Shown: positions 17,469 to 26,543 of the stretch, piece by piece
Position numbering within the stretch: the first letter of the stretch is position 1
How the letters are laid out: each line of letters begins with the position of its first letter
Origin: Rubrivivax sp.
GTDB taxonomy: Bacteria > Pseudomonadota > Gammaproteobacteria > Burkholderiales > Burkholderiaceae_C
Direction of reading: 5' to 3'
Length of the DNA: 64,000 nt
NCBI GenBank assembly: GCA_026125665.1
Contig: JAHCKS010000014.1
Location: 16,008 to 80,007, forward strand
Position numbers and translations under genes: made by a program
Notes under the pieces: model-generated
What the model was told of the DNA's origin: nothing
Databases searched by the model: none
Seen by the model: the letters and a program-made list of their open reading frames with translations, nothing else

Positions 17469-17882
17469 TCAGGCGCAGTTCACCGTCACCGTGTGCGCGT
17501 GCCCGCCGTCGGTGGACGACGACAGCATCACCGCCCCCTTGGCCTTGATCGCCTGCAGCTGCGAAGGTGCCAGCGTGACCGTGTGGTTGTGGTTGCCGGT
17601 GCCCTGGATGTTGTAGGTCTTGCTGAGCGGCGAGTCGAGGTCGGCCTGCGGGATGGTGAGCAGGTGGCCGTGGTTGGCGCTGATGGTCACTGCGCCGCAC
17701 GACAGCGGCGCAGGGGCAGGGGCCGGCGTGGGCGCCGGCGCGGGACCGGGTGACGGCCCGGGGGCCGGTGCCGGCGCGGGCGCCAGCATCTCGTCATTCT
17801 CGCCACCGCCACATCCCTGCAGCCACACGAGGAATGCGGCGCTGGCTGCTGCGCTGCTGCAAAACGATCGCCTGGTCGTCAT
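17469..17882 (-). CDS. Small His-rich lipoprotein with Tat-like signal
   Basis: A 137-residue exported protein of unknown function. The N-terminus TTRRSF is a twin-arginine-like motif and WLQGC gives a lipobox with Cys24. A Pro/Ala linker (about 33-60) leads to a small domain containing NHGHLL, GNHNHTVTL and GGHAHTVTVNC: three H-x-H motifs in regularly spaced strands, which suggests metal binding. The frame is open to 18050, but the signal sequence fixes the start at MTTRR (17882). Similar uncharacterised proteins are, to my knowledge, common in Burkholderiales. Confidence 0.75.
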   Translation of the reverse strand: MTTRRSFCSSAAASAAFLVWLQGCGGGENDEMLAPAPAPAPGPSPGPAPAPTPAPAPAPLSCGAVTISANHGHLLTIPQADLDSPLSKTYNIQGTGNHNHTVTLAPSQLQAIKAKGAVMLSSSTDGGHAHTVTVNCA

Positions 17883-18194
17883 CTCCGCGCCTTTCGCTCT
17901 TCGGGGCCCTGGACCGCTGCACGTGGCGACGGTGTACGCCCTGGCGCGCTCGCGGCCCTTCGCCAACCGGTCAGCGACGAAAGCGCGTGTATCCGGGCGC
18001 GGCGAGTGCGCCGCGACCAGCGGCCGGCGGGTCGCGGGGCTCAGCGTCACGCGCCCGCCGCGAACACCGCCGCGGATGCCTGTCCGCGCGGGTAGCAGCC
18101 GGTAGGAGCGCTTGCCAACTCCGCAGGGATGGTTACCAGCGGCGACAACCGGCTCGCCGACCGCACCGCCGCGGCGCGCCCGCGCCGAGGCGCT
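17883..18194. other. 312-bp intergenic region without a gene
   Basis: The region separates two leftward genes for small exported proteins and must contain the promoter of the lipoprotein gene. I see no repeat, structured RNA or clear promoter in it, and the open frames crossing it lack family-like sequence. Confidence 0.5.
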
Positions 18195-18710
18195 TCAGCC
18201 GAGCGCGGCGCAGATGTCGAGCTGCGTGCCGCTCACCTGCCTGAATGTGAACATGAAGCTGCCGTCGGCGCTGATCGTGAACAGCACGCGCCCGATGTAC
18301 TGCACCGTCGTCGGCCCCGGCGGGTTGTCGGACGGGAACATGACGATCACGTTGTGCCCGGTCGCCGCGACGGTCTGCGTCCCGTCGGCGTTGAACTGGG
18401 TGTGCGTGCCCGAGCCGTTGGGCTGCAGCGAGAGCGAACTGCCGCTGAAGAGGTTCACGAAGGTCAGCGCCGAGCCTCTTCCCGCCGAGATGAAGCAAAC
18501 CGGATTGCCGTTGCGGTCGGTGAACAGGCGGTTCTGCTGCGGCGCCCCTCGAACCTCGATGCGCAGGTCGAAGCCGGGGCAGGCCAGGCCTGCCGGCAGG
18601 TCCACCACCACGTCGGGCGGTGTCTGGGCGAGTGCATCGGCCGCGGACTGGAAGGCCAGGATCGATGCGACGAGGAGGCGGGTCGACCAGGTCCGATTCA
18701 TGGCAATCAT
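18195..18710 (-). CDS. Exported protein of unknown function
   Basis: A 171-residue protein with a Sec signal peptide (hydrophobic about 11-24, cleavage after ADALA-Q). The mature part has a FDLRIEVRGAPQQNRLF segment, two Cys (GLACPGF, NPVCFIS) that could form a disulfide, and a Gly/Ser/Thr-rich beta-like C-half. I do not recognise a characterised family. Start ATG 18710 has GAGAG 5 bases upstream; the Met at 18701 is possible. It stands alone between intergenic regions. Confidence 0.7.
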   Translation of the reverse strand: MIAMNRTWSTRLLVASILAFQSAADALAQTPPDVVVDLPAGLACPGFDLRIEVRGAPQQNRLFTDRNGNPVCFISAGRGSALTFVNLFSGSSLSLQPNGSGTHTQFNADGTQTVAATGHNVIVMFPSDNPPGPTTVQYIGRVLFTISADGSFMFTFRQVSGTQLDICAALG

Positions 18711-18760
18711 TCGATCTCTCCCGACCCGCAGAGGACTGCCGGGTCAGATGGTCTGTTCTC

Positions 18761-18778
18761 CCGGGCAGACGTGCCCGG
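18761..18778 (-). terminator. Terminator-like hairpin after the methyltransferase gene
   Basis: A perfect 7-bp stem CCGGGCA/TGCCCGG with a GACG loop lies 18 bases beyond the methyltransferase stop. A second hairpin (18723-18745, GACCCGCAG/CTGCCGGGTC, one bulge) follows. There is no T tract, so the call is tentative. Confidence 0.45.
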
Positions 18779-18796
18779 CGCGGCGAGTCGGCGGGG

Positions 18797-19843
18797 TTAC
18801 TTCCTCGCCTCGAGAATGAGGTTGAACGGCGTCTCGGTCGCGCGGCGGAACAGGTCGAACCCGGCCTCGAGGAACACCTTGCGCAGTCGCGCCTCGCCGG
18901 CCTGCGCGCCGAGTGCCAAACCCACCTCCTGCGACAGCGAGTTGGGCGTGCACACGCAGGTGGAGGCGGCATAGAAGAGCCGCCCCACGGGGTTGACGTT
19001 GTCGTCGAGCCGGTCGCCGGCGAACGGCTCGACGAGCATCACCGCGCCGCCCGGCTTGAGCGCCTGCAGCGCATGGCGTGCCGCGCCCACGGGGTCACCC
19101 ATGTCGTGCAGGCAGTCGAAGAAGCAGACGAGATCGTAGTCACGGCCGGCGTAGTTCTTCGCCGTGGCCTGCGAGAACGACGTGCGCTCGGCGACGCCTC
19201 CTTCGCGCGCACGGTCGCGTGCCGCGTCGATCGACGGGCCGTGGTAGTCGAAGCCGTGGAAACGCGACTTCGGGAACGCCTGCGCCATGATCACCGTCGA
19301 GGCGCCGTGCCCGCAGCCGACATCGGCCACCTTGGCACCCGCGTGCAGCTTGTCCACCACCCCCTCGAGCGCCGGCAGCCACTCGGCGACGAGGTGCGTC
19401 TTGTAGCCCGGCCGGAAGAAGCGCTCGGTGCCGCGGAACAGGCACGGGTGGTGGTCGCCCCACGCGAGAGCGCCGTTGCCGCGCATCGCCGCGACGATCT
19501 TGTCCTTGTCGATGAAGAACGACGCGAGCGCGTGCGCGCCGCCGGCCATGAACACCGGCGAGTCCTCCACCGCGAGCGCCAGTGCCTGCTCGGGCGGCAG
19601 GCGGAACCTGCCGTCGTCGTGCTCGATGTATCCGGCGGCAGCCTGGGCGCTCAGCCACTCGCGCACGAGGCGCGCATTGCATTTCGTCTTTGCTGACAGC
19701 TGCTCGGGCGTAACCGGCTCGTTGTCGGCCATCGCGCGATACAGCCCCAGCTCGTCGCCGAGGATGACGTTGGCGGCCAGCGCCGCCCCGCCGAAGTCGG
19801 TGACGAGCTTGCCCATGAACTCCTGGAGCTTGGCCTGATCCAT
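18797..19843 (-). CDS. Class I SAM-dependent methyltransferase with N-terminal winged helix
   Basis: A 348-residue enzyme. Residues about 20-85 form a winged-helix/dimerisation region (TPEQLSAKTKCNARLVREWL), as in small-molecule methyltransferases. The SAM-binding motif I is VADVGCGHGAS (172-182), with the acidic loop FHGFDYHGPSI and motif GRDYDLVCFFDCLHDM. The acceptor substrate is unknown. GGAGG lies just before ATG 19843. It is the last gene of the leftward cluster that starts with the TetR gene at 25429, though a 163-base gap precedes it. Confidence 0.86.
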   Translation of the reverse strand: MDQAKLQEFMGKLVTDFGGAALAANVILGDELGLYRAMADNEPVTPEQLSAKTKCNARLVREWLSAQAAAGYIEHDDGRFRLPPEQALALAVEDSPVFMAGGAHALASFFIDKDKIVAAMRGNGALAWGDHHPCLFRGTERFFRPGYKTHLVAEWLPALEGVVDKLHAGAKVADVGCGHGASTVIMAQAFPKSRFHGFDYHGPSIDAARDRAREGGVAERTSFSQATAKNYAGRDYDLVCFFDCLHDMGDPVGAARHALQALKPGGAVMLVEPFAGDRLDDNVNPVGRLFYAASTCVCTPNSLSQEVGLALGAQAGEARLRKVFLEAGFDLFRRATETPFNLILEARK

Positions 19844-20006
19844 GGCGGGTGCCTCCGTTGCGTGCGCGCGTGCTGCGAGGCTGCATGCTGCGAGCCGGAC
19901 CCATCGCTGTCCCGAAGCGGCGCCGAAACTTGGACGAAATCGGCTCGCCGGCGGGCACGTGCTCCACCACGCCCGCCCGGAAGCAGGCGGCAATGCACGC
20001 GAACGG

Positions 20007-20771
20007 TCAGCGCCCGCCCGCTGGCGCGTTGCCTGCGGCGTCGCCACGAGGCGCGATCCACGCCTCGTGCGGCACTTCGATCCACACCGCGCGCGCCACC
20101 GCGACGGGCTGCCCGTGCTCGGTGTGGATCGCGCTGGCCGCCATGCGCCGACGGCCTTCCTGGCCAATCGGCCAGGCTGTCACGACGGCGCGTTGCCCCA
20201 CCGCAAGCTCGCCGACAAGCGTGGCGCACAGCTCGCCGAGGACGATGGCGCTGCCCTCGGGCACCGGCAGCACGGCGAAGCCGCTCGGGCAGTCGAGCGC
20301 GGCCCACACGAACTCGCTGGCGACTGCGCCGGTCGCGTCGGCGAGCGACTCATCGGGCACCCACGGCGCCGCGAGCAAGCCTGGCTCGGGCAGCGCACCG
20401 GGGAAGATGCGCAGGCCGTCGCCCGCCGCGCGCTCGGGGCCGCAGACGAAGCAGCGCGGAAAGAGGTGCCTTCGAAACCCCAGGTAGGTGTCGACCGCGC
20501 GCTCGCACGTCGCGAAGTCCGGGCGGGGCGGCGCTTCGAGATGCAGCTCGGCCTTCTTCGCCTCGCCGATGAGCGTCGAGCCGTGCAGCAGGCGCGCGTG
20601 GTCGTCGCTCCACTCGCGGCGCAACGGCGTGTGCAGCGGCGGCGGGGCCTTCAGGCGCACCGACACCGTCCCACGCAGCTGCCTCGCGATGCGTCCGCAC
20701 ACGTAACCCCCGTTGCCGGAGTTCGGCGGGCCGCAGAAGCGCGCGTCGATCTCGAGCGACTCGACGTTCAT
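20007..20771 (-). CDS. Hotdog-fold thioesterase-like protein
   Basis: A 254-residue protein with the pattern FCGPPNSGNGGYVCG (12-26) and CFVCGPERAAGDGLRIF (about 124-140), as in PaaI-like hotdog proteins annotated as acyl-CoA thioesterases. No signal peptide. Its ATG overlaps the stop of the upstream ATPase/regulator gene (ATGA, 20768-20771), so it is translated with it. Acyl-CoA or acyl-carrier chemistry is likely; the substrate is unknown. Confidence 0.7.
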   Translation of the reverse strand: MNVESLEIDARFCGPPNSGNGGYVCGRIARQLRGTVSVRLKAPPPLHTPLRREWSDDHARLLHGSTLIGEAKKAELHLEAPPRPDFATCERAVDTYLGFRRHLFPRCFVCGPERAAGDGLRIFPGALPEPGLLAAPWVPDESLADATGAVASEFVWAALDCPSGFAVLPVPEGSAIVLGELCATLVGELAVGQRAVVTAWPIGQEGRRRMAASAIHTEHGQPVAVARAVWIEVPHEAWIAPRGDAAGNAPAGGR

Positions 20772-22420
20772 GTCGCGCCCCCCGTGCCGCCGGCGCTCCC
20801 GATGCACGCGGCGCGGCGAAGCAGCGCCTGGCGTCGCGCCGAGCACAACGCGACGCGCACGGCCTCGCGCAGCCCGTTGTGCGTGAAGACGAGCACGTCG
20901 CCCCGGTGGACGAGCCACCCCTCGGCCAGCAGCTCGTCCAGTGCGTCCAGCGCGGGCCCGCGGGCCTGCCCGGCCAAGCGGCGCAGCCACTCGAAGTCGG
21001 TGCCCGGCCCGGCCACCGCGGCGGCCTCCAGCAGCCGCCTGCCGGGCAGGCTCAGGTGGTCGAGGTGCCGGCACACCGCCTCGACGAGCGTGACCGGCAG
21101 CGCGGGCGACGCCTCGGGTTGCCGCGCTGCGCCGGCCCTCGAAGCCCCCTGAGCACCGCCGTCGAGCCGGCACGTGCTGGCGCGGATGAGCTCGTGCACG
21201 AACATCGGGTTGCCCTCGCTTTCGCGCGCCAGGGTGGCGGCCAGCTCGGTGGCGTCGGCGGCATCGCCGAAGACCTGGCGCGCGAGCTGCCCGATCTCTG
21301 CCGCCGCCAGCCGTGGCAGGACCACTCGCGCCACGTGCGCGTGACCGAGCAGCGCCTCGTACAGCGCCGCTGCACGCGCGTGGCGCGGCGGCCCGGGCAG
21401 CGTGGCCCACAGTAGCAGGGGTGCGCGCGCCGCGCTTTCGGCCAGCGCGTGCAGCACCAGGGCGCTTGCCGCATCGACCCACTGCGCGTCGTCGATGCCG
21501 ATCACGAGGCCGGGGCCGGCGGCGAGTGCATGCGCCAGTGCCACCAGGGCGGCCACCCGCCGGGCCAGCCTGATCTCGGCGCTCTCGCCCCCGAGCCCGG
21601 CCAGCGGCGCCAGCCGCGCCGCCGCGGCCGGCACGAGCGCAGCCAGTTCGGCGCGCGACACCGCATCCAGCTTGCGCAGCAGCGGCGCATCGGCCCGCTC
21701 GACCAGCTGGCCGACGAGGCGCGCCAGCATGACGTTCGCGACGCGGGCCTCGATCTCGAAGCATCGCAGCGCCACCGTGGCACGGCCGTGTGCAGCGGCC
21801 AGCCGCAGGCCCTCGGCGAGCAGCCGGCTCCTGCCGATGCCCGGCTCGCCCTCGATGAGCAGCACACGCTCGGCCGTCTCGGCCGGCGCTCGAGCCATCG
21901 CCGCAAGCCGGAAGAGCTCGCCGTGCCGGCCAACGAAGGCCAGCTCAGGGGGCGGCGGCTCGCGCCGGGCCGGAGCGGCCTCACACAGCTCCAGCCCCGC
22001 CACGCCGGCCACGGGCACGTGCCCGGGCACGTGCTCGGGTGCCGGCGGGCCTTGGTCCGGCCAGGTCGACTCGAGCACGTAGCCGCGCCGCGGCAGCGTG
22101 CGCAGCAGCGCCGCGCCGCTCGGCCCGAGCGTGCGCCGAATCTCGAGCACGCACTGCACGAGGCTGTCGTCGGTGACGACCCGGCCGCGCCACACGGCGT
22201 CGAACAGGGCTTGTTTGCTCACGACCTCGCCCGGCCGGCGGGCCAACTCCAGCAGCACGGCCATCGTCTGGCGACGCAGTTCGACGCGGCGCCCCTGGCT
22301 GTCGAGCAGCTGGCCGCGTCGGCGATCCAGCGTCAGGCCGGCCAGCGGCAATGGTTCGGCTTCATCGATGGCATCGGCGGCGGCGGCAGCCGCCGTGGCG
22401 ACGGTCAGGGTGGCTGGCAT
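20768..22420 (-). CDS. OmpR-type winged-helix / AAA ATPase regulator
   Basis: A 550-residue cytosolic protein. The winged helix (about 25-118; GEVVSKQALFDAVW, LVQCVLEIRRTLG, RTLPRRGYVL) is the CadC/OmpR DNA-binding type. A signalling ATPase follows (about 160-500), with P-loop GEPGIGRS (191-198) and Walker B GLVIGIDDAQW (Asp310-311). The invariant P-loop Lys is Arg197 here, so ATP hydrolysis is doubtful. The long C-terminal TPR array usual in such regulators is missing. The start MPATL (22420) has GAGGAA upstream; the frame is open beyond it into the preceding gene. Probably controls the surrounding cluster. Confidence 0.83.
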   Translation of the reverse strand: MPATLTVATAAAAAADAIDEAEPLPLAGLTLDRRRGQLLDSQGRRVELRRQTMAVLLELARRPGEVVSKQALFDAVWRGRVVTDDSLVQCVLEIRRTLGPSGAALLRTLPRRGYVLESTWPDQGPPAPEHVPGHVPVAGVAGLELCEAAPARREPPPPELAFVGRHGELFRLAAMARAPAETAERVLLIEGEPGIGRSRLLAEGLRLAAAHGRATVALRCFEIEARVANVMLARLVGQLVERADAPLLRKLDAVSRAELAALVPAAAARLAPLAGLGGESAEIRLARRVAALVALAHALAAGPGLVIGIDDAQWVDAASALVLHALAESAARAPLLLWATLPGPPRHARAAALYEALLGHAHVARVVLPRLAAAEIGQLARQVFGDAADATELAATLARESEGNPMFVHELIRASTCRLDGGAQGASRAGAARQPEASPALPVTLVEAVCRHLDHLSLPGRRLLEAAAVAGPGTDFEWLRRLAGQARGPALDALDELLAEGWLVHRGDVLVFTHNGLREAVRVALCSARRQALLRRAACIGSAGGTGGAT

Positions 22421-22458
22421 CGTGGTTTCCTCGATGTCGTCGGCGCGGGCCCCGAGCC

Positions 22459-24633
22459 TCAGCGCGCCCACCAGCGGTTCTCCAGCACCTGTGCGATCGT
22501 GGCCGCTGCGCGCGCGGCGCCGTCGGTCTCCACGGGCCGATAGCGCACCGGCCGGTGCATGACCTCGAGCGCGCGCTCGGCCAGCTCGTCGGGCGAGGTC
22601 TCGTGGTAGTTCACCGCGTTGTCGGCGCCGTAGTTGAAGAGCCTGCGTCGCACGTGCACGCATTGCTCGAAGTGGTTGCGCAGCGGAAAGCTCAGGAACG
22701 GCCGCTTCGTCGCCACGAGCTCCATGCAAGTGGACAAGCCGCCCTGCACCAGAGCAAGGTCGCAGCAGGCCAGGTGCTCGTACAGGTTGTGGACGTAGGG
22801 GCGCACTTCGAGGCCTTCGCGCTCCGCGAAGGCGTCGGCAGGCAGCCGCGGGCCAGTGACGAGGACGAGACGCAGCTCGGGCACGGCGGCCTTCATGCGC
22901 GGGAAGGCCTCGGCGATGCGCTGCAGCAGCCCCCGGCCGACCGCCGTGCCGCCCACCGAGGCGATGGCGATCTTCTCGTGCGGCCGGTAGCCGTGCCTGT
23001 CACGCAGGCGCTCGGTATCGGCCAGTGCCGCGGGGTCGAACGGCAGGCAGTAGCCGCAGTAGCAGAAGTTGCGGTCGGTCCACTCGCGGATGCCGGGCAG
23101 GCCGGGGCCGAACGGGTCCTCGACGACGTCGTCGCGGTTGCCGACGAAGATCGCGCGGTCGCGCAGGTACGGGTAGCGCCCGACGTGCTCAATCATCTCG
23201 GCGTTGCGGTCGGCGCACAGGTACGCCTCGCGCTCGTCGTCGCGGTTCATCGGCACACAGCCGACGAAGTCGGTGAGGAAGACAAAAGGCTGGCGCTTCA
23301 GCTCGGGGTTCTCGTGGTAGTGGTAGTCCACGTCCCAGGCTTCGTCGCCGATCACGAGGTCGTAGTGCTCGGCCTCCACCAGGTCGGCGAAGGTCATGAA
23401 GTTGGCCGTCATCACCTCGTCCATCGTGCGCGTCGCGAAGAAGGCGTTGAGGTCGTGCTCGCCGGCGACGCTTTCGAAGTGCCGGCTCTCGTTGGCCAGG
23501 CGCTGCGTGGCCGGGTGCAGGCGCTCGCCCTCCTGCTGCAGGTAGCGCGCCGCCGGGTCGGCGGTGAACCAGTCGATCTCGACGTCGCCATGCTTCTTGC
23601 GCAGCTCGCGCGCGATGGCCAGGTCGCGCTGCACGTGCCCCAGGCCGATGGGGCTGGAGACGAAGAGGGCGCGCTTCTTGCGGTTCATGCCACGCACCCA
23701 GGTGCGCTCGCCCAGCGGGCCGAGGACGAAGTCGCGCACCGCGCGGGCGAAGAACGCCGGGTCGCGCGCCGAGGGCACGTGGCCGCCGCCCCCGACCGTG
23801 AGCAGCTTGGCGCCGGGCACGAGCTCGTGCACGGCCCGGCCCTTCGCGTACGGGACGCGACGATCCTTGTCGCCGTGGATCACGAGCGTCGGGCAGCGCA
23901 CGCGGCGCGCGCAGTCGGTCACGTCGGTGCCGAGCCAGCCGTTGCGGCACCACTCCAGCGTCTGCGCATCCGTGGCCCACGCGTGGCGCACGCCGTCCTC
24001 GATACCCTTGGTGGAGTGCGGCTCGGTGAAGAGCGTCTTCATGAAGGTATCGACATAGCCCGGCCAGTCGGTGCGCATCTTCTCGATGTCGGCGCGGATC
24101 ATCTGCGCGATCTTCTCGTCGTCGACGCGCATCTCGGCCATCCCGCCCACGACGACGAGGTGCGAGACCCGCTCGGGATGCTCGGCGGCGAAGCGCAGGA
24201 TCGTCAGTGCGGCTGCGGAGATGCTCACCAGCGCGACGCGGTCCGCGCCCGCCGCGTCGAGCACGGCGACGAAGTCGGCGTAGAACTCGTCGAAGCTGTA
24301 GGCCGCCTGGCCCGGCGGCCGGTCCGAGCGGCCGTTGCCGCGGCCGTCGCAGGTGATGACGCGGAAGTGGCGCGAGAGGTACGGCACCACCGCACGCCCC
24401 ATGCGCATGTGCCCGATCTGGTACGGCTGCGGGAACGCGAGCCATGGGCCGCTCGTGCCCCACACCGCCCAGGCGAGCCTCACGCCATCGCGCTCGGCGA
24501 AGCCCTCTCGGGCCGGCTCGATGGTCTCGAAGGGCCTGAGGTGCTCATCGGGCACGCGCCCGGGCTCGGGCAGCGGGCCGACGATCTTTCGGAAGCTCTC
24601 CGGGTCGTTTCCCAGGAGTTGCGGCTGGTTCAT
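22459..24633 (-). CDS. Alpha/beta hydrolase-glycosyltransferase (GT-B) fusion
   Basis: A 724-residue two-domain protein. Residues about 40-308 are an alpha/beta hydrolase: CDGRGNGRSDRP, nucleophile elbow VSISAAA with Ser139 (the flanking Gly residues of G-x-S-x-G are Ser and Ala), acid Asp255 (VIHGDKDRRVP) and His285 (GGGGHVP). From about 316 it is a GT-B transferase: VSSPIGLGHVQRDLAIA, and near the C-terminus VQGGLSTCMELVATKRPF then HFEQCVHVRRRL, the UDP-sugar site of UGT/MurG-like enzymes. No signal or membrane helix. GGGAG lies 7 bases before ATG 24633. An internal Met316 (23688) lacks a ribosome site, so I treat it as one protein. Confidence 0.85.
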   Translation of the reverse strand: MNQPQLLGNDPESFRKIVGPLPEPGRVPDEHLRPFETIEPAREGFAERDGVRLAWAVWGTSGPWLAFPQPYQIGHMRMGRAVVPYLSRHFRVITCDGRGNGRSDRPPGQAAYSFDEFYADFVAVLDAAGADRVALVSISAAALTILRFAAEHPERVSHLVVVGGMAEMRVDDEKIAQMIRADIEKMRTDWPGYVDTFMKTLFTEPHSTKGIEDGVRHAWATDAQTLEWCRNGWLGTDVTDCARRVRCPTLVIHGDKDRRVPYAKGRAVHELVPGAKLLTVGGGGHVPSARDPAFFARAVRDFVLGPLGERTWVRGMNRKKRALFVSSPIGLGHVQRDLAIARELRKKHGDVEIDWFTADPAARYLQQEGERLHPATQRLANESRHFESVAGEHDLNAFFATRTMDEVMTANFMTFADLVEAEHYDLVIGDEAWDVDYHYHENPELKRQPFVFLTDFVGCVPMNRDDEREAYLCADRNAEMIEHVGRYPYLRDRAIFVGNRDDVVEDPFGPGLPGIREWTDRNFCYCGYCLPFDPAALADTERLRDRHGYRPHEKIAIASVGGTAVGRGLLQRIAEAFPRMKAAVPELRLVLVTGPRLPADAFAEREGLEVRPYVHNLYEHLACCDLALVQGGLSTCMELVATKRPFLSFPLRNHFEQCVHVRRRLFNYGADNAVNYHETSPDELAERALEVMHRPVRYRPVETDGAARAAATIAQVLENRWWAR

Positions 24634-25429
24634 CACATGTCTCCCTGCCGACCGCGTTCTTCTCGGCGCGCCGGCCGGCGCGCGCGTCGAGCGATTCGAT
24701 CAACTGCTGCATCGCCTGCAGCGCCTGGCGGCCGCGGACGCGTTCGCCGGGGCTGTCGATCAGGTCGATGAGCTCCAGTCCGACCCAGAAGTGCCCGATC
24801 CACGTGCCCAGCACCTCGGCGGTGATGTAGGGTGGCACGCGGCCGCCGGCGGCTTCGTAGGCGTCGAAGGCCTCGCGCACCGCCTTTTCGATCAGCCGGC
24901 GCCACGCCACCAGGCGCGGCGTCAGCTTGGCGCGCAGCCCCGGGTGCGACAGGCTTGCCGCGAGCAGCTCGATCTGCATGCGCACGAAGCCCGAAGCCAG
25001 GTCGTCGTCGTAGAAGCGCACGGCCTGGGCCCACTTCTGGCCGCTCGTCAGCGGCGCCCCGTACATCGCCGACTGGCGTGCGAGCAGGCGGCGGTTCGCG
25101 CTGTCGAGCACCTCGATGACGAGCTGGTCCTTGCTGCCGAAGTGGTAGTTGATCAGCGCGTGGTTGACGCCGGCATCGCGGGCGATCTCGCGCAGGCTGA
25201 GCGCGCCGTAGCCCTCGGTGGCGAGGCGGCGGAAGGCGGCATCGAGGATGCGGGCGCGCGTCGCGCCGAGATCACCGTCGTCGGGCGGCGCCGGCACGGC
25301 CTCCCGCCGTCGCGGGCGCGTGGCGCGACCGGAGCCCGCCGCTCTTGCATCGGCGGCCGGCCGGGTGCGCTTTTGAACAACTGGTTTAACCACTTGTTCA
25401 ACTCTGCGCCGATCGACGCTTCCTGTCAA
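24545..25429 (-). CDS. TetR/AcrR family regulator of the hydrolase-GT cluster
   Basis: A regulator with a TetR helix-turn-helix at about 55-105 of the longest frame (SLREIARDAGVNHALINYHF, GSKDQLVIEVLD) and an alpha-helical ligand domain of the RutR/CerR-like kind. No ATG exists near the N-terminus: the longest frame starts at TTG 25429 and a GTG at 25393 is the main alternative, inside the 29-bp palindrome. The C-terminal 30 or so residues overlap the next gene by 89 bases and look like overlap filler. Likely represses itself and the downstream cluster. Confidence 0.83.
   Translation of the reverse strand: MTGSVDRRRVEQVVKPVVQKRTRPAADARAAGSGRATRPRRREAVPAPPDDGDLGATRARILDAAFRRLATEGYGALSLREIARDAGVNHALINYHFGSKDQLVIEVLDSANRRLLARQSAMYGAPLTSGQKWAQAVRFYDDDLASGFVRMQIELLAASLSHPGLRAKLTPRLVAWRRLIEKAVREAFDAYEAAGGRVPPYITAEVLGTWIGHFWVGLELIDLIDSPGERVRGRQALQAMQQLIESLDARAGRRAEKNAVGRETCDEPAATPGKRPGELPKDRRPAARARARAR
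25373..25401. promoter_or_regulatory. 29-bp palindrome, probable TetR operator
   Basis: Left arm TTGAACAACTGGTT (25373-25386), centre T, right arm AACCACTTGTTCAA (25388-25401). Thirteen of the 14 arm positions pair. It falls over the ambiguous start of the TetR gene and in an A/T-rich island within very GC-rich DNA, which fits an autoregulatory operator. Confidence 0.7.
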
Positions 25430-25538
25430 GCCGAAGTCGACCGCTGCGGCCGCGGGCGTGACCGGTTCAGGGGATGCCGGCGGCGCGACCGGCGACCGGC
25501 GACCGCGACGCGTGCGCCGACCGTGCGGCGCGCGGTGT

Positions 25539-26543
25539 TCAGTGCCCTGCCAGCAGCTCGTACGAGCGCTTGCGCAGCGCGTGCTCGTGCACGCCGGTGG
25601 CGACGATCAGCTCGTCGGCGCGCGTGCGCTCCACGAGCGTGCGCAACTGCGCGCGCACGGTGGCCGGCGAGCCGGCGGCGGCGCAGGCCAGCATGCGCAT
25701 CACGCCCGCCTTCTCGGCCGGCGACCACATCGCCTCGAGCTCGGCCGGCGCGATCGGCCGCGGCAGCGGCCCGCGCCGGCCGCGCTGCATGCCGAGGAAG
25801 CGCTGCTGCACCGACGTGAAGAGGAAGGCCGCCTCGTCGTCGCTCGGCGCGACGACGACATTGACGCCGACCATCGCGTGCGGCCGCGGCCAGCGTGCGC
25901 TCGGCCGGTACGTGGCGCGGTAGACCTCGAGCGCCTGATCGAGCAGGTCGGGCGCGAAGTGCGAGGCGAAGGCGAACGGCGCGCCGAGGTAGGCCGCGAG
26001 CTGCGCGCTGAACAGGCTCGAGCCGAGCAGCCAGATCGGCACCTTCGTGCCCACGCCGGGGATGGCGCGCACGGCCTGGTCGGGCTCGGCATCGTCGAGA
26101 TAGGCCTGCAGCTCGACGACGTTGCGCGGAAACTCGTCCTCCTCGGCCGCGACGCCGAGGTGCCGGCGCAGCGCGCGCATCGTCAGGCGGTCGGTGCCCG
26201 GCGCGCGGCCGAGGCCGAGGTCGATGCGGTCGGGGTACAGCGTGGCCAGCGTGCCGAACTGTTCGGCGATGACGAGCGGCGCGTGGTTGGGCAGCATCAC
26301 GCCGCCCGAGCCGACGCGCATCGTGCGCGTGACGGCGGCGATCTGCCCCACCAGCACGGCCGTGGCGCTGCTGGCCACGCCGTCCATGTTGTGGTGCTCG
26401 GCCACCCAGTAGCGGCGGTAGCCGAGCGCCTCGCAGTGGCGCGCCAGGTCGAGCGTGTTGCGCAGCGCGTCGGCCGCGCTGCCGCCTTCGACGATGAGCG
26501 ACAGGTCGAGCACGGAAAGGGGTGGCAGCGGGGTCGTGGTCAT
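25539..26543 (-). CDS. LLM-class flavin-dependent oxidoreductase
   Basis: A luciferase-like monooxygenase or F420/FMN oxidoreductase of 334 residues. The N-terminal [31 protein letters not shown] and [20 protein letters not shown] are the hallmarks of the 'MsnO8-type' LLM group, followed by [16 protein letters not shown]. The start overlaps the stop of the BrkB gene (ATGA, 26540-26543), so it is translated with it. The substrate is unknown. Confidence 0.9.

What the first reader, a model, noticed from the sequence alone, without database searches (positions are those of the whole stretch)
18797..25429. Unassigned cluster: TetR, hydrolase-glycosyltransferase fusion, winged-helix ATPase, hotdog, methyltransferase
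Five leftward genes combine sugar transfer, ester or thioester hydrolysis, acyl handling and methylation with two dedicated regulators. This looks like modification or detoxification of a small molecule or lipid, but I know no described system with this composition. It is my main candidate for an undescribed pathway.
Basis: inference. Interest (0 to 1): 0.75.

Follow-up and report, generated by a model that had tools for sequence, protein, structure and literature searches.

The report
Inducible hydrolase-glycosyltransferase methyltransferase module

Summary
The five leftward genes are real, but the five-gene set is not a conserved pathway. Comparison with 25 other loci (20 Burkholderiales, 4 from another class of the phylum, 1 Deinococcus plasmid) shows a two-gene core, the TetR regulator and the alpha/beta-hydrolase-glycosyltransferase fusion, adjacent in 25 of 25. 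Beside the fusion the winged-helix ATPase and the so-called hotdog gene occur in 0 of 20 Burkholderiales loci, the methyltransferase in 2 of 20. In 18 of 25 loci the neighbour is instead MddA, a methanethiol S-methyltransferase, in two gene orders and acquired at least twice by its tree. The window's genome lacks MddA; an unrelated SAM methyltransferase may stand in. A 29-bp palindrome overlapping the promoter precedes TetR in 21 of 21 Burkholderiales loci and occurs once in the window's genome, so TetR probably represses this operon alone. The hydrolase triad is invariant; the sugar-transfer half folds like GT1 enzymes. Best reading: an inducible detoxification module that hydrolyses a small molecule and glycosylates a product, while a methyltransferase caps a released thiol. 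Chemistry and substrate are inferred. Open-access full-text searches found no description of the combination.

The parts
25401..25429 (-). promoter-like boxes: TTGACA (25424-25429), 17-nt spacer, CAGAGT (25401-25406)
   Evidence: Best-score boxes per locus: TTGACA exact in 19 of 21 Burkholderiales loci, TTGACG in L073, no good match in L045; in these 20 the second box begins 4-7 nt before the operator. The generic scan listed no promoter here: CAGAGT matches TATAAT at only 3 of 6 positions, its rule asks 4.
25373..25401 (-). 29-bp palindromic operator candidate TTGAACAAGTGGTTAAACCAGTTGTTCAA
   Evidence: one place in the 6.28-Mb genome at up to 3 mismatches, backward control 0; matrix finds it upstream of TetR in 20 of 20 fusion-bearing Burkholderiales sequences of at least 6 kb, 6 of them not used for the matrix; L036 seen; matrix trained without the window scores it 51, next window site 3.6, ten shuffles at most 15.4. 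Binding not tested.
24545..25297 (-). TetR-family regulator (start GTG 25297 inferred); its end overlaps the fusion start by 89 nt
   Evidence: PF00440 2.3e-15; adjacent to the fusion in 25 of 25 other loci
22459..24633 (-). alpha/beta-hydrolase-glycosyltransferase fusion, 724 aa from ATG 24633
23719..24501 (-). hydrolase half (about residues 45-305); Ser139, Asp257, His285 invariant
   Evidence: alignment (19 of 19; 25 of 25 full-length, window included); model matches esterase and lactonase chains 3om8, 1va4, 2xua with TM by target 0.83-0.87
22480..23676 (-). GT-B, GT1-like half (about residues 320-718)
   Evidence: Glyco_tran_28_C 6.8e-8; AF2 model of the half pLDDT 88.6, pTM 0.90; best 50 Foldseek matches are GT1-type enzymes such as 6j32, CalG1, CalG3, macrolide GTs 2iya and OleD, mite UGTs, YojK, E 2e-14 to 9e-12
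20768..22420 (-). winged-helix (Trans_reg_C) + AAA_16 protein; local neighbour, probably not part of the module
   Evidence: beside the fusion in 0 of 20 loci; one partial winged-helix match 9 kb away in L028
20007..20771 (-).
   Evidence: 0 of 20 loci; relatives in 1 of 60 other relatives' genomes (39%) and 9 plasmid records
18797..19843 (-). HTH_65 + class I SAM methyltransferase (Rv2258c/TnmJ type), possible stand-in for MddA
   Evidence: near the fusion in the window, L028 and L029 only; relatives in genomes without the fusion
18195..18710 (-). 171-aa secreted-looking protein next to the methyltransferase; in L029 it lies between fusion and methyltransferase; membership doubtful
   Evidence: no Pfam or NCBIfam match

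Best explanation
A TetR-controlled detoxification module for a small organic molecule. Inferred mechanism: TetR dimers sit on the 29-bp operator that overlaps the promoter and block transcription. The toxin, or a product of it, binds TetR and releases it. The fusion protein then hydrolyses an ester, thioester or lactone bond with its Ser-Asp-His triad and, in the same polypeptide, transfers a sugar from an NDP-sugar to the freed (or another) acceptor group. In most relatives a neighbouring MddA-type membrane enzyme S-methylates a thiol (the released leaving group, H2S or methanethiol); in the window, L028 and L029 a soluble SAM methyltransferase may do the capping. Shown: gene linkage, conserved palindrome at the promoter, invariant triad, GT1-like fold of the model, MddA identity by family model. 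Inferred: repression, chemistry, coupling of the two domains, substrate.
For: TetR + fusion adjacent in 25 of 25 other loci: 20 Burkholderiales, 4 of another class, 1 Deinococcus plasmid. Operator at the promoter in 21 of 21 Burkholderiales loci and once in the window's genome. Triad invariant in 25 of 25 full-length proteins. GT half resembles GT1 enzymes acting on macrolides, enediynes and plant compounds. MddA next door in 14 of 20 Burkholderiales loci and 4 of 4 of the other class, in the orders TetR-fusion-MddA and MddA-TetR-fusion; 18 of 18 match the MddA model at E <= 1e-80, although in that other-class family only 39 of 198 genomes have MddA and 4 of 198 the fusion. The MddA tree forces at least 2 changes of the label 'linked'. 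Mdd enzymes are reported to detoxify H2S and methanethiol (PMC12904073, sections read). Patchy occurrence: 2 of 37 genomes of the genus, window's included; 4 of 398 of the phylum sample, window's included.
Against: No substrate, product or inducer is known. G167, scored 100% complete, has the pair and no MddA match at all, so S-methylation by MddA is not essential; L040 and the Deinococcus plasmid also show no methyltransferase next door. Relatives of the window's methyltransferase occur in genomes without the fusion, and in the window two genes stand between it and the fusion. No transporter belongs to the core. Foldseek matches of the GT half have TM 0.49-0.68, rmsd 6-10.5 A and 12-18% identity, so donor and acceptor cannot be read off. 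The strict operator pattern was not found in G012 and G167, whose sites diverge, L045 lacks the promoter boxes, and the operator was not shown in the other-class loci. Biosynthesis of a small glycoside cannot be excluded.
Confidence: 0.45

Rival explanations
1. Biosynthetic tailoring: the fusion and methyltransferase make an S-methylated or glycosylated small metabolite or signal of the cell's own, with TetR as a metabolite-responsive repressor.
For: Many of the GT half's closest folds are natural-product GTs; the window's methyltransferase is nearest in the PDB to TnmJ, a tiancimycin-cluster protein, and Rv2258c; the TetR's best NCBIfam hit is the ScbR autoregulator-binding type, 49.8 bits against a cut-off of 150.
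Against: Clustering of neighbours in 19 loci plus the window showed, apart from TetR, fusion, MddA and shadow frames, nothing next to the core that is shared across genera (not every ORF was annotated); one or two enzymes under one operator are few for a pathway.
Confidence: 0.2
2. Sulfur-volatile handling only: the module is a methanethiol/H2S stress operon, and the fusion releases or traps sulfur compounds (for example thioesters or thioglucosides) so that MddA can make dimethylsulfide.
For: MddA is the only neighbour besides TetR seen in both groups of Pseudomonadota loci; acquired more than once; Mdd genes are induced by H2S and methanethiol in other organisms (PMC12904073 section 2.5).
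Against: G167 and the window's genome have the pair without MddA; of 52 MddA copies in the other-class family only 4 are linked to a fusion.
Confidence: 0.15
3. One reading: all five genes act together in the window's organism.
For: Co-directional; TetR overlaps the fusion, then gaps of 38 bp, -4 bp and 163 bp; no minus-strand terminator-like site between 17300 and 26700, though the scan finds few by chance anyway.
Against: ATPase and 'hotdog' genes beside the fusion in 0 of 20 related loci, also not in L028 and L029, which share upstream genes with the window; hotdog fold not supported.
Confidence: 0.1
4. The hydrolase half is a ligand sensor or scaffold rather than an enzyme, as in RsbQ/KAI2-type receptors, and tunes the GT.
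For: RsbQ and KAI2-like chains are among the fold matches; the hydrolase half is less conserved than the GT half (42 of 260 against 128 of 401 invariant positions).
Against: Esterase and lactonase chains rank higher. The invariant triad does not decide, since RsbQ and KAI2 keep one too (recalled).
Confidence: 0.08

Closest known systems
Mdd pathway (MddA methanethiol S-methyltransferase; also MddH, MddM1, MddM2)
   Same: 18 of 25 relatives of this locus carry an MddA homologue beside the core
   Different: The window's genome has none. The main text of PMC12904073 holds the words glycosyltransferase, hydrolase and TetR 0 times; one paper held mddA + glycosyltransferase + TetR, unrelated in the passages seen
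GT1 natural-product and xenobiotic glycosyltransferases (CalG1, CalG3, OleD, mite UGT202A2, YojK)
   Same: GT-B fold of the model; conserved QGG..(T)..E..P..HFEQ donor-end pattern (motif meaning recalled)
   Different: 12-18% identity; here fused behind a hydrolase; no convincing PDB relative of the GT half by sequence
alpha/beta hydrolases: PA hydrolase 3om8, P. fluorescens arylesterase, 3-oxoadipate enol-lactonase, AHL lactonase Est816; macrolide esterases
   Same: fold, triad; 22-27% identity for the four structures named
   Different: family scores far under the curated cut-offs (PcaD 104 vs 256; macrolide esterase 58 vs 420); fused to a GT
Rv2258c / TnmJ type HTH_65 methyltransferases
   Same: window methyltransferase matches 8g5s over residues 1-347 (2.7e-52) and 5f8c over 6-330 (9.3e-38) and has a VADVGCGHG stretch typical of SAM binding (recalled motif)
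   Different: TnmJ belongs to an enediyne cluster and is recalled, not read here, as a cofactorless oxygenase; function of the window protein unknown

Membership tests
TetR repressor operon | TetR_N DNA-binding domain | tested here: met
   PF00440 56.5 bits, cut-off 24
TetR repressor operon | palindromic site overlapping the promoter of the regulated operon | tested here: met
   as sequence only
TetR repressor operon | TetR binds the site and represses | not testable with these tools
   needs gel shift and reporter
alpha/beta hydrolase | fold and Ser-Asp-His triad | tested here: met
3-oxoadipate enol-lactonase (PcaD) | NCBIfam curated cut-off | tested here: not met
   104 bits against 255.85
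macrolide esterase (Est) | NCBIfam curated cut-off | tested here: not met
   58 bits against 420
GT1-like GT-B glycosyltransferase | GT-B fold | tested here: met
   on a predicted model; Glyco_tran_28_C over cut-off
GT1-like GT-B glycosyltransferase | NDP-sugar-dependent transfer | not testable with these tools
   needs purified protein
MddA (Mdd pathway), window's genome | MddA homologue over the 270-bit cut-off | tested here: not met
   best 20.5 bits; genome 88.6% complete
MddA (Mdd pathway), related loci | MddA homologue beside the core | tested here: met
   18 of 25 loci; 18 of 18 linked genes at E <= 1e-80; activity not testable
Rv2258c-type HTH_65 methyltransferase (18797-19843) | HTH_65 plus class I methyltransferase domain | tested here: met
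   41.3 bits, cut-off 24.1; 58.3, cut-off 27
hotdog thioesterase (20007-20771) | match to a hotdog-fold profile or structure | tested here: not met
   no Pfam hotdog, NCBIfam or PDB sequence match; fold not predicted, so a distant hotdog is not excluded
RhlA/RhlB rhamnolipid enzymes | RhlA and RhlB family models | not tested
   not among the 25 of 31 NCBIfam families shown for the fusion; no direct comparison made

The most novel reading that the evidence does not exclude
A mobile 'cut, sugar-coat and methylate' defence against a thiol-releasing compound (for example a thiolactone, thioester or other sulfur-bearing antibiotic or plant chemical): one polypeptide performs phase I hydrolysis and phase II glycosylation, and a thiol S-methyltransferase, recruited again and again from different families (MddA at least twice, HTH_65 type, perhaps the UbiE-like pair of L039), disarms the liberated thiol.
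Probability: 0.18. Interest if true: 0.75.

Novelty: new variant of a known kind. Interest (0 to 1): 0.5.

Why it matters
If right, it links MddA, known as a source of dimethylsulfide in soils, to an inducible small-molecule defence, which would give part of soil dimethylsulfide formation a different purpose. It also offers a natural bifunctional hydrolase-glycosyltransferase for biocatalysis and a clean sensor (one TetR, one 29-bp operator) that can be used to find the inducing compound.

Tried and rejected
Five-gene pathway: rejected as a conserved unit (0, 0 and 2 of 20 loci for ATPase, 'hotdog', methyltransferase). Luciferase-like monooxygenase upstream (25542-26543) as a member: among the 20 loci only L028 and L029 share it and the only operator lies downstream of it. 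Hotdog assignment: no support. Macrolide esterase, PcaD, LipJ membership: scores far under cut-offs. Viral carriers: 2 pattern hits, neither a relative. Full-length structure: GT half poor, solved by folding that half with 22 sequences. One clade of linked MddAs: rejected (0% of bootstrap trees). Palindromes before mddA in L094/L095 (TCGGTCGWTCGACCGA) have only 10 of 14 pairs, a score also reached by chance sites, so not claimed. Deinococcus locus: only a weak 17.6-bit operator-like site. Literature: 8 of 10 searches used; no listed paper describes the combination; (5 of 6 terms) returned 0, one search returned 1. PMC12904073: outline, passages and sections 4, 7, 8, 10 seen; PMC8719888: passages; other papers only as search listings.

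Full report
What is there. The window is G000:C46:16008-80007 of a 6.28-Mb, 268-contig genome scored 88.6% complete; G+C is 70-76% across 18001-26000. A genome of its genus is a contig titled Burkholderiales, and the two closest relatives of the fusion are titled Rubrivivax. Five minus-strand genes lie between 18797 and 25429. Family scans confirm TetR, the alpha/beta-hydrolase-glycosyltransferase fusion, the winged-helix AAA_16 protein and an HTH_65-type SAM methyltransferase; they do not confirm a hotdog fold for 20007-20771. The first-stage start of TetR falls in a TTGACA box; a GTG at 25297 behind GGAGG is more likely (inference).

Comparative test. A peptide-pattern scan of 84,980 species genomes with the fusion, which reaches close relatives only, gave 19 loci, L028-L046, 67-82% identical, all titled as Burkholderiales or genera that I place there. 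L009 is the same contig as L037 and is not counted again. L073 (G167, same family as the window) came. In these 20 loci TetR adjoins the fusion in 20. The winged-helix ATPase and the 'hotdog' gene are beside it in 0 of 20; the methyltransferase in 2 of 20, L028 and L029, which also share the upstream luciferase-like gene. L028 reads TetR-fusion-methyltransferase where the window has two extra genes in between, so these look like a later local insertion (inference).

The usual neighbour. After the fusion, 14 of 20 loci carry a membrane methyltransferase, at most 261 bp away. Two of them score 352 and 353 bits against the 270-bit cut-off of the MddA methanethiol S-methyltransferase model. The six other loci: L028 and L029 (HTH_65 methyltransferase; in L029 with a 171-aa gene in between), L039 (two UbiE-like class I methyltransferases starting 482 bp downstream), L036 (contig ends 273 bp after the fusion; cannot tell), L040 and L073 (no methyltransferase next door). 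A profile search of 398 genomes of the phylum at E <= 1e-60 found the fusion in four: G000, G167 and two genomes of one family outside the window's class. In that family 4 of 198 genomes have it. In all four MddA is adjacent: MddA-TetR-fusion in L094, L095, L098 and TetR-fusion-MddA in L099. MddA is in 39 of those 198 genomes, in 52 copies, so adjacency in 4 of 4 is far above what random placement would give (inference). All 18 linked MddAs match the model at E <= 1e-80, which lies near its cut-off. A tree of 47 MddAs (18 linked; 29 not known to be linked, 27 of them from the 30 loci returned for the 52 copies, after leaving out three duplicates) needs four changes of the label, at least two forced by well-supported branches; L099 sits inside a 27-row clade of otherwise unlinked copies. 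So MddA was recruited, or the pair moved to it, at least twice. A Deinococcus plasmid, the one match among 72,556 plasmid records, has the fusion at 49% with TetR upstream, but with an in-frame stop between the two halves and an acyl-CoA-dehydrogenase-like gene, not a methyltransferase, downstream. Totals for the 25 other loci: TetR 25, MddA 18, another methyltransferase 3, none next door 3, unknown 1.

Against a fixed three-gene system: G167, 100% complete by its score, has no MddA match, and the window's genome has none over 20.5 bits. Relatives of the window's methyltransferase (75, 59, 51, 47%) occur in four genomes in which one search listed no full-length fusion.

Regulation. Upstream of TetR each Burkholderiales locus has a 29-bp palindrome, consensus TTGAACAATTGGTTAAACCAATTGTTCAA. 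A matrix built from 15 sites found it in all 20 fusion-bearing sequences of at least 6 kb, six of them not used in training; L036 is shorter and was seen. Weaker second sites above 15 bits appeared in L032 (26.5, overlapping), L033 (20.6) and L073 (17.1, overlapping), and one of 17.6 in the Deinococcus locus. A matrix built without the window scores the window site 51, next best 3.6, ten shuffles at most 15.4. At up to three mismatches it occurs once in the window's genome and the backward control never; that strict pattern was not found in G012 and G167, whose sites diverge. Best-score promoter boxes put the second hexamer 4-7 nt before the site in 20 of 21 loci, with TTGACA exact in 19; L045 has no good match. 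The generic scan listed no promoter here. This is the layout of a repressor that blocks its own operon (inference). No minus-strand terminator-like site was found between 17300 and 26700; one was found on the other strand and 2.7 are expected in shuffles, so the scan says little.

The enzyme. Ser139, Asp257 and His285 (numbering from ATG 24633) are invariant in 25 of 25 full-length proteins, and the Deinococcus piece keeps them. The GT half is the more conserved: 128 of 401 positions invariant against 42 of 260. A first model of the whole protein was poor in the GT half (mean pLDDT 69). Folded alone with 22 sequences it reaches pLDDT 88.6, pTM 0.90 in the best of five models, the other four 68-87. 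The 50 matches shown are GT1-type enzymes for kitacinnamycin, calicheamicin, macrolides, landomycin and others, mite UGTs and B. subtilis YojK, E 2e-14 to 9e-12, TM 0.49-0.68, 12-18% identity. The hydrolase half matches esterases, an enol-lactonase and an AHL lactonase. By sequence the GT half has no convincing PDB relative.

How it most likely works. TetR senses a small molecule and frees the promoter; the fusion hydrolyses it and glycosylates a product; a methyltransferase caps a thiol or other group. Linkage, palindrome, triad and predicted fold are shown; everything chemical is inferred. I give the general detoxification reading 0.45. Known Mdd enzymes are reported to protect against H2S and methanethiol (PMC12904073, section 2.5), which is why a released thiol is the most economical common substrate, but the two genomes without MddA show that the pair is kept without it.

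Compared with what is known. The parts belong to known superfamilies; the combination is not described in the papers listed by the searches, a library of open-access papers only. I file it as a new variant of a known kind, an inducible small-molecule modification operon, with an unusual fused enzyme and a repeatedly acquired S-methyltransferase partner.

Noticed in passing
window 25542-26543: MsnO8-family luciferase-like monooxygenase (TIGR03558, 441 bits, cut-off 167) directly upstream; among the 20 loci shared with L028 and L029 only.
   Followed up: partly
window 18195-18710; L029:4060-4575: Secreted-looking 171-aa protein without family match that lies on opposite sides of the methyltransferase in the window and L029 (76% identical over 23-170).
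   Followed up: no
window 17469-17888: Small secreted-looking protein with histidines in its C-terminal half and no Pfam match.
   Followed up: no
L070:8221-8610: 129-aa open frame 48% identical to residues 589-718 of the fusion, in G059 where no full-length fusion was listed: looks like a remnant.
   Followed up: partly
L074:9034-11085: Deinococcus plasmid copy has one in-frame stop between hydrolase and GT parts, annotated as two genes.
   Followed up: partly
L073:9496-10449: TIR-domain protein (PF13676, 85.7 bits) follows the fusion in G167 where other loci have MddA.
   Followed up: no
L069:6671-9622: In G016 an MddA gene (58% to that of L032) stands near a gene that reads like a VOC protein and a winged-helix-like regulator, without the fusion in the 16.6 kb seen (the two names are my reading of the translations).
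   Followed up: no
L111: MddA of G830 falls among the fusion-linked MddAs in the tree although that genome showed no fusion at E <= 1e-60: possible loss.
   Followed up: no
window 22480-24501: Within one polypeptide the hydrolase half keeps half the share of invariant positions of the GT half (16% against 32%), as if the substrate end were changing.
   Followed up: partly
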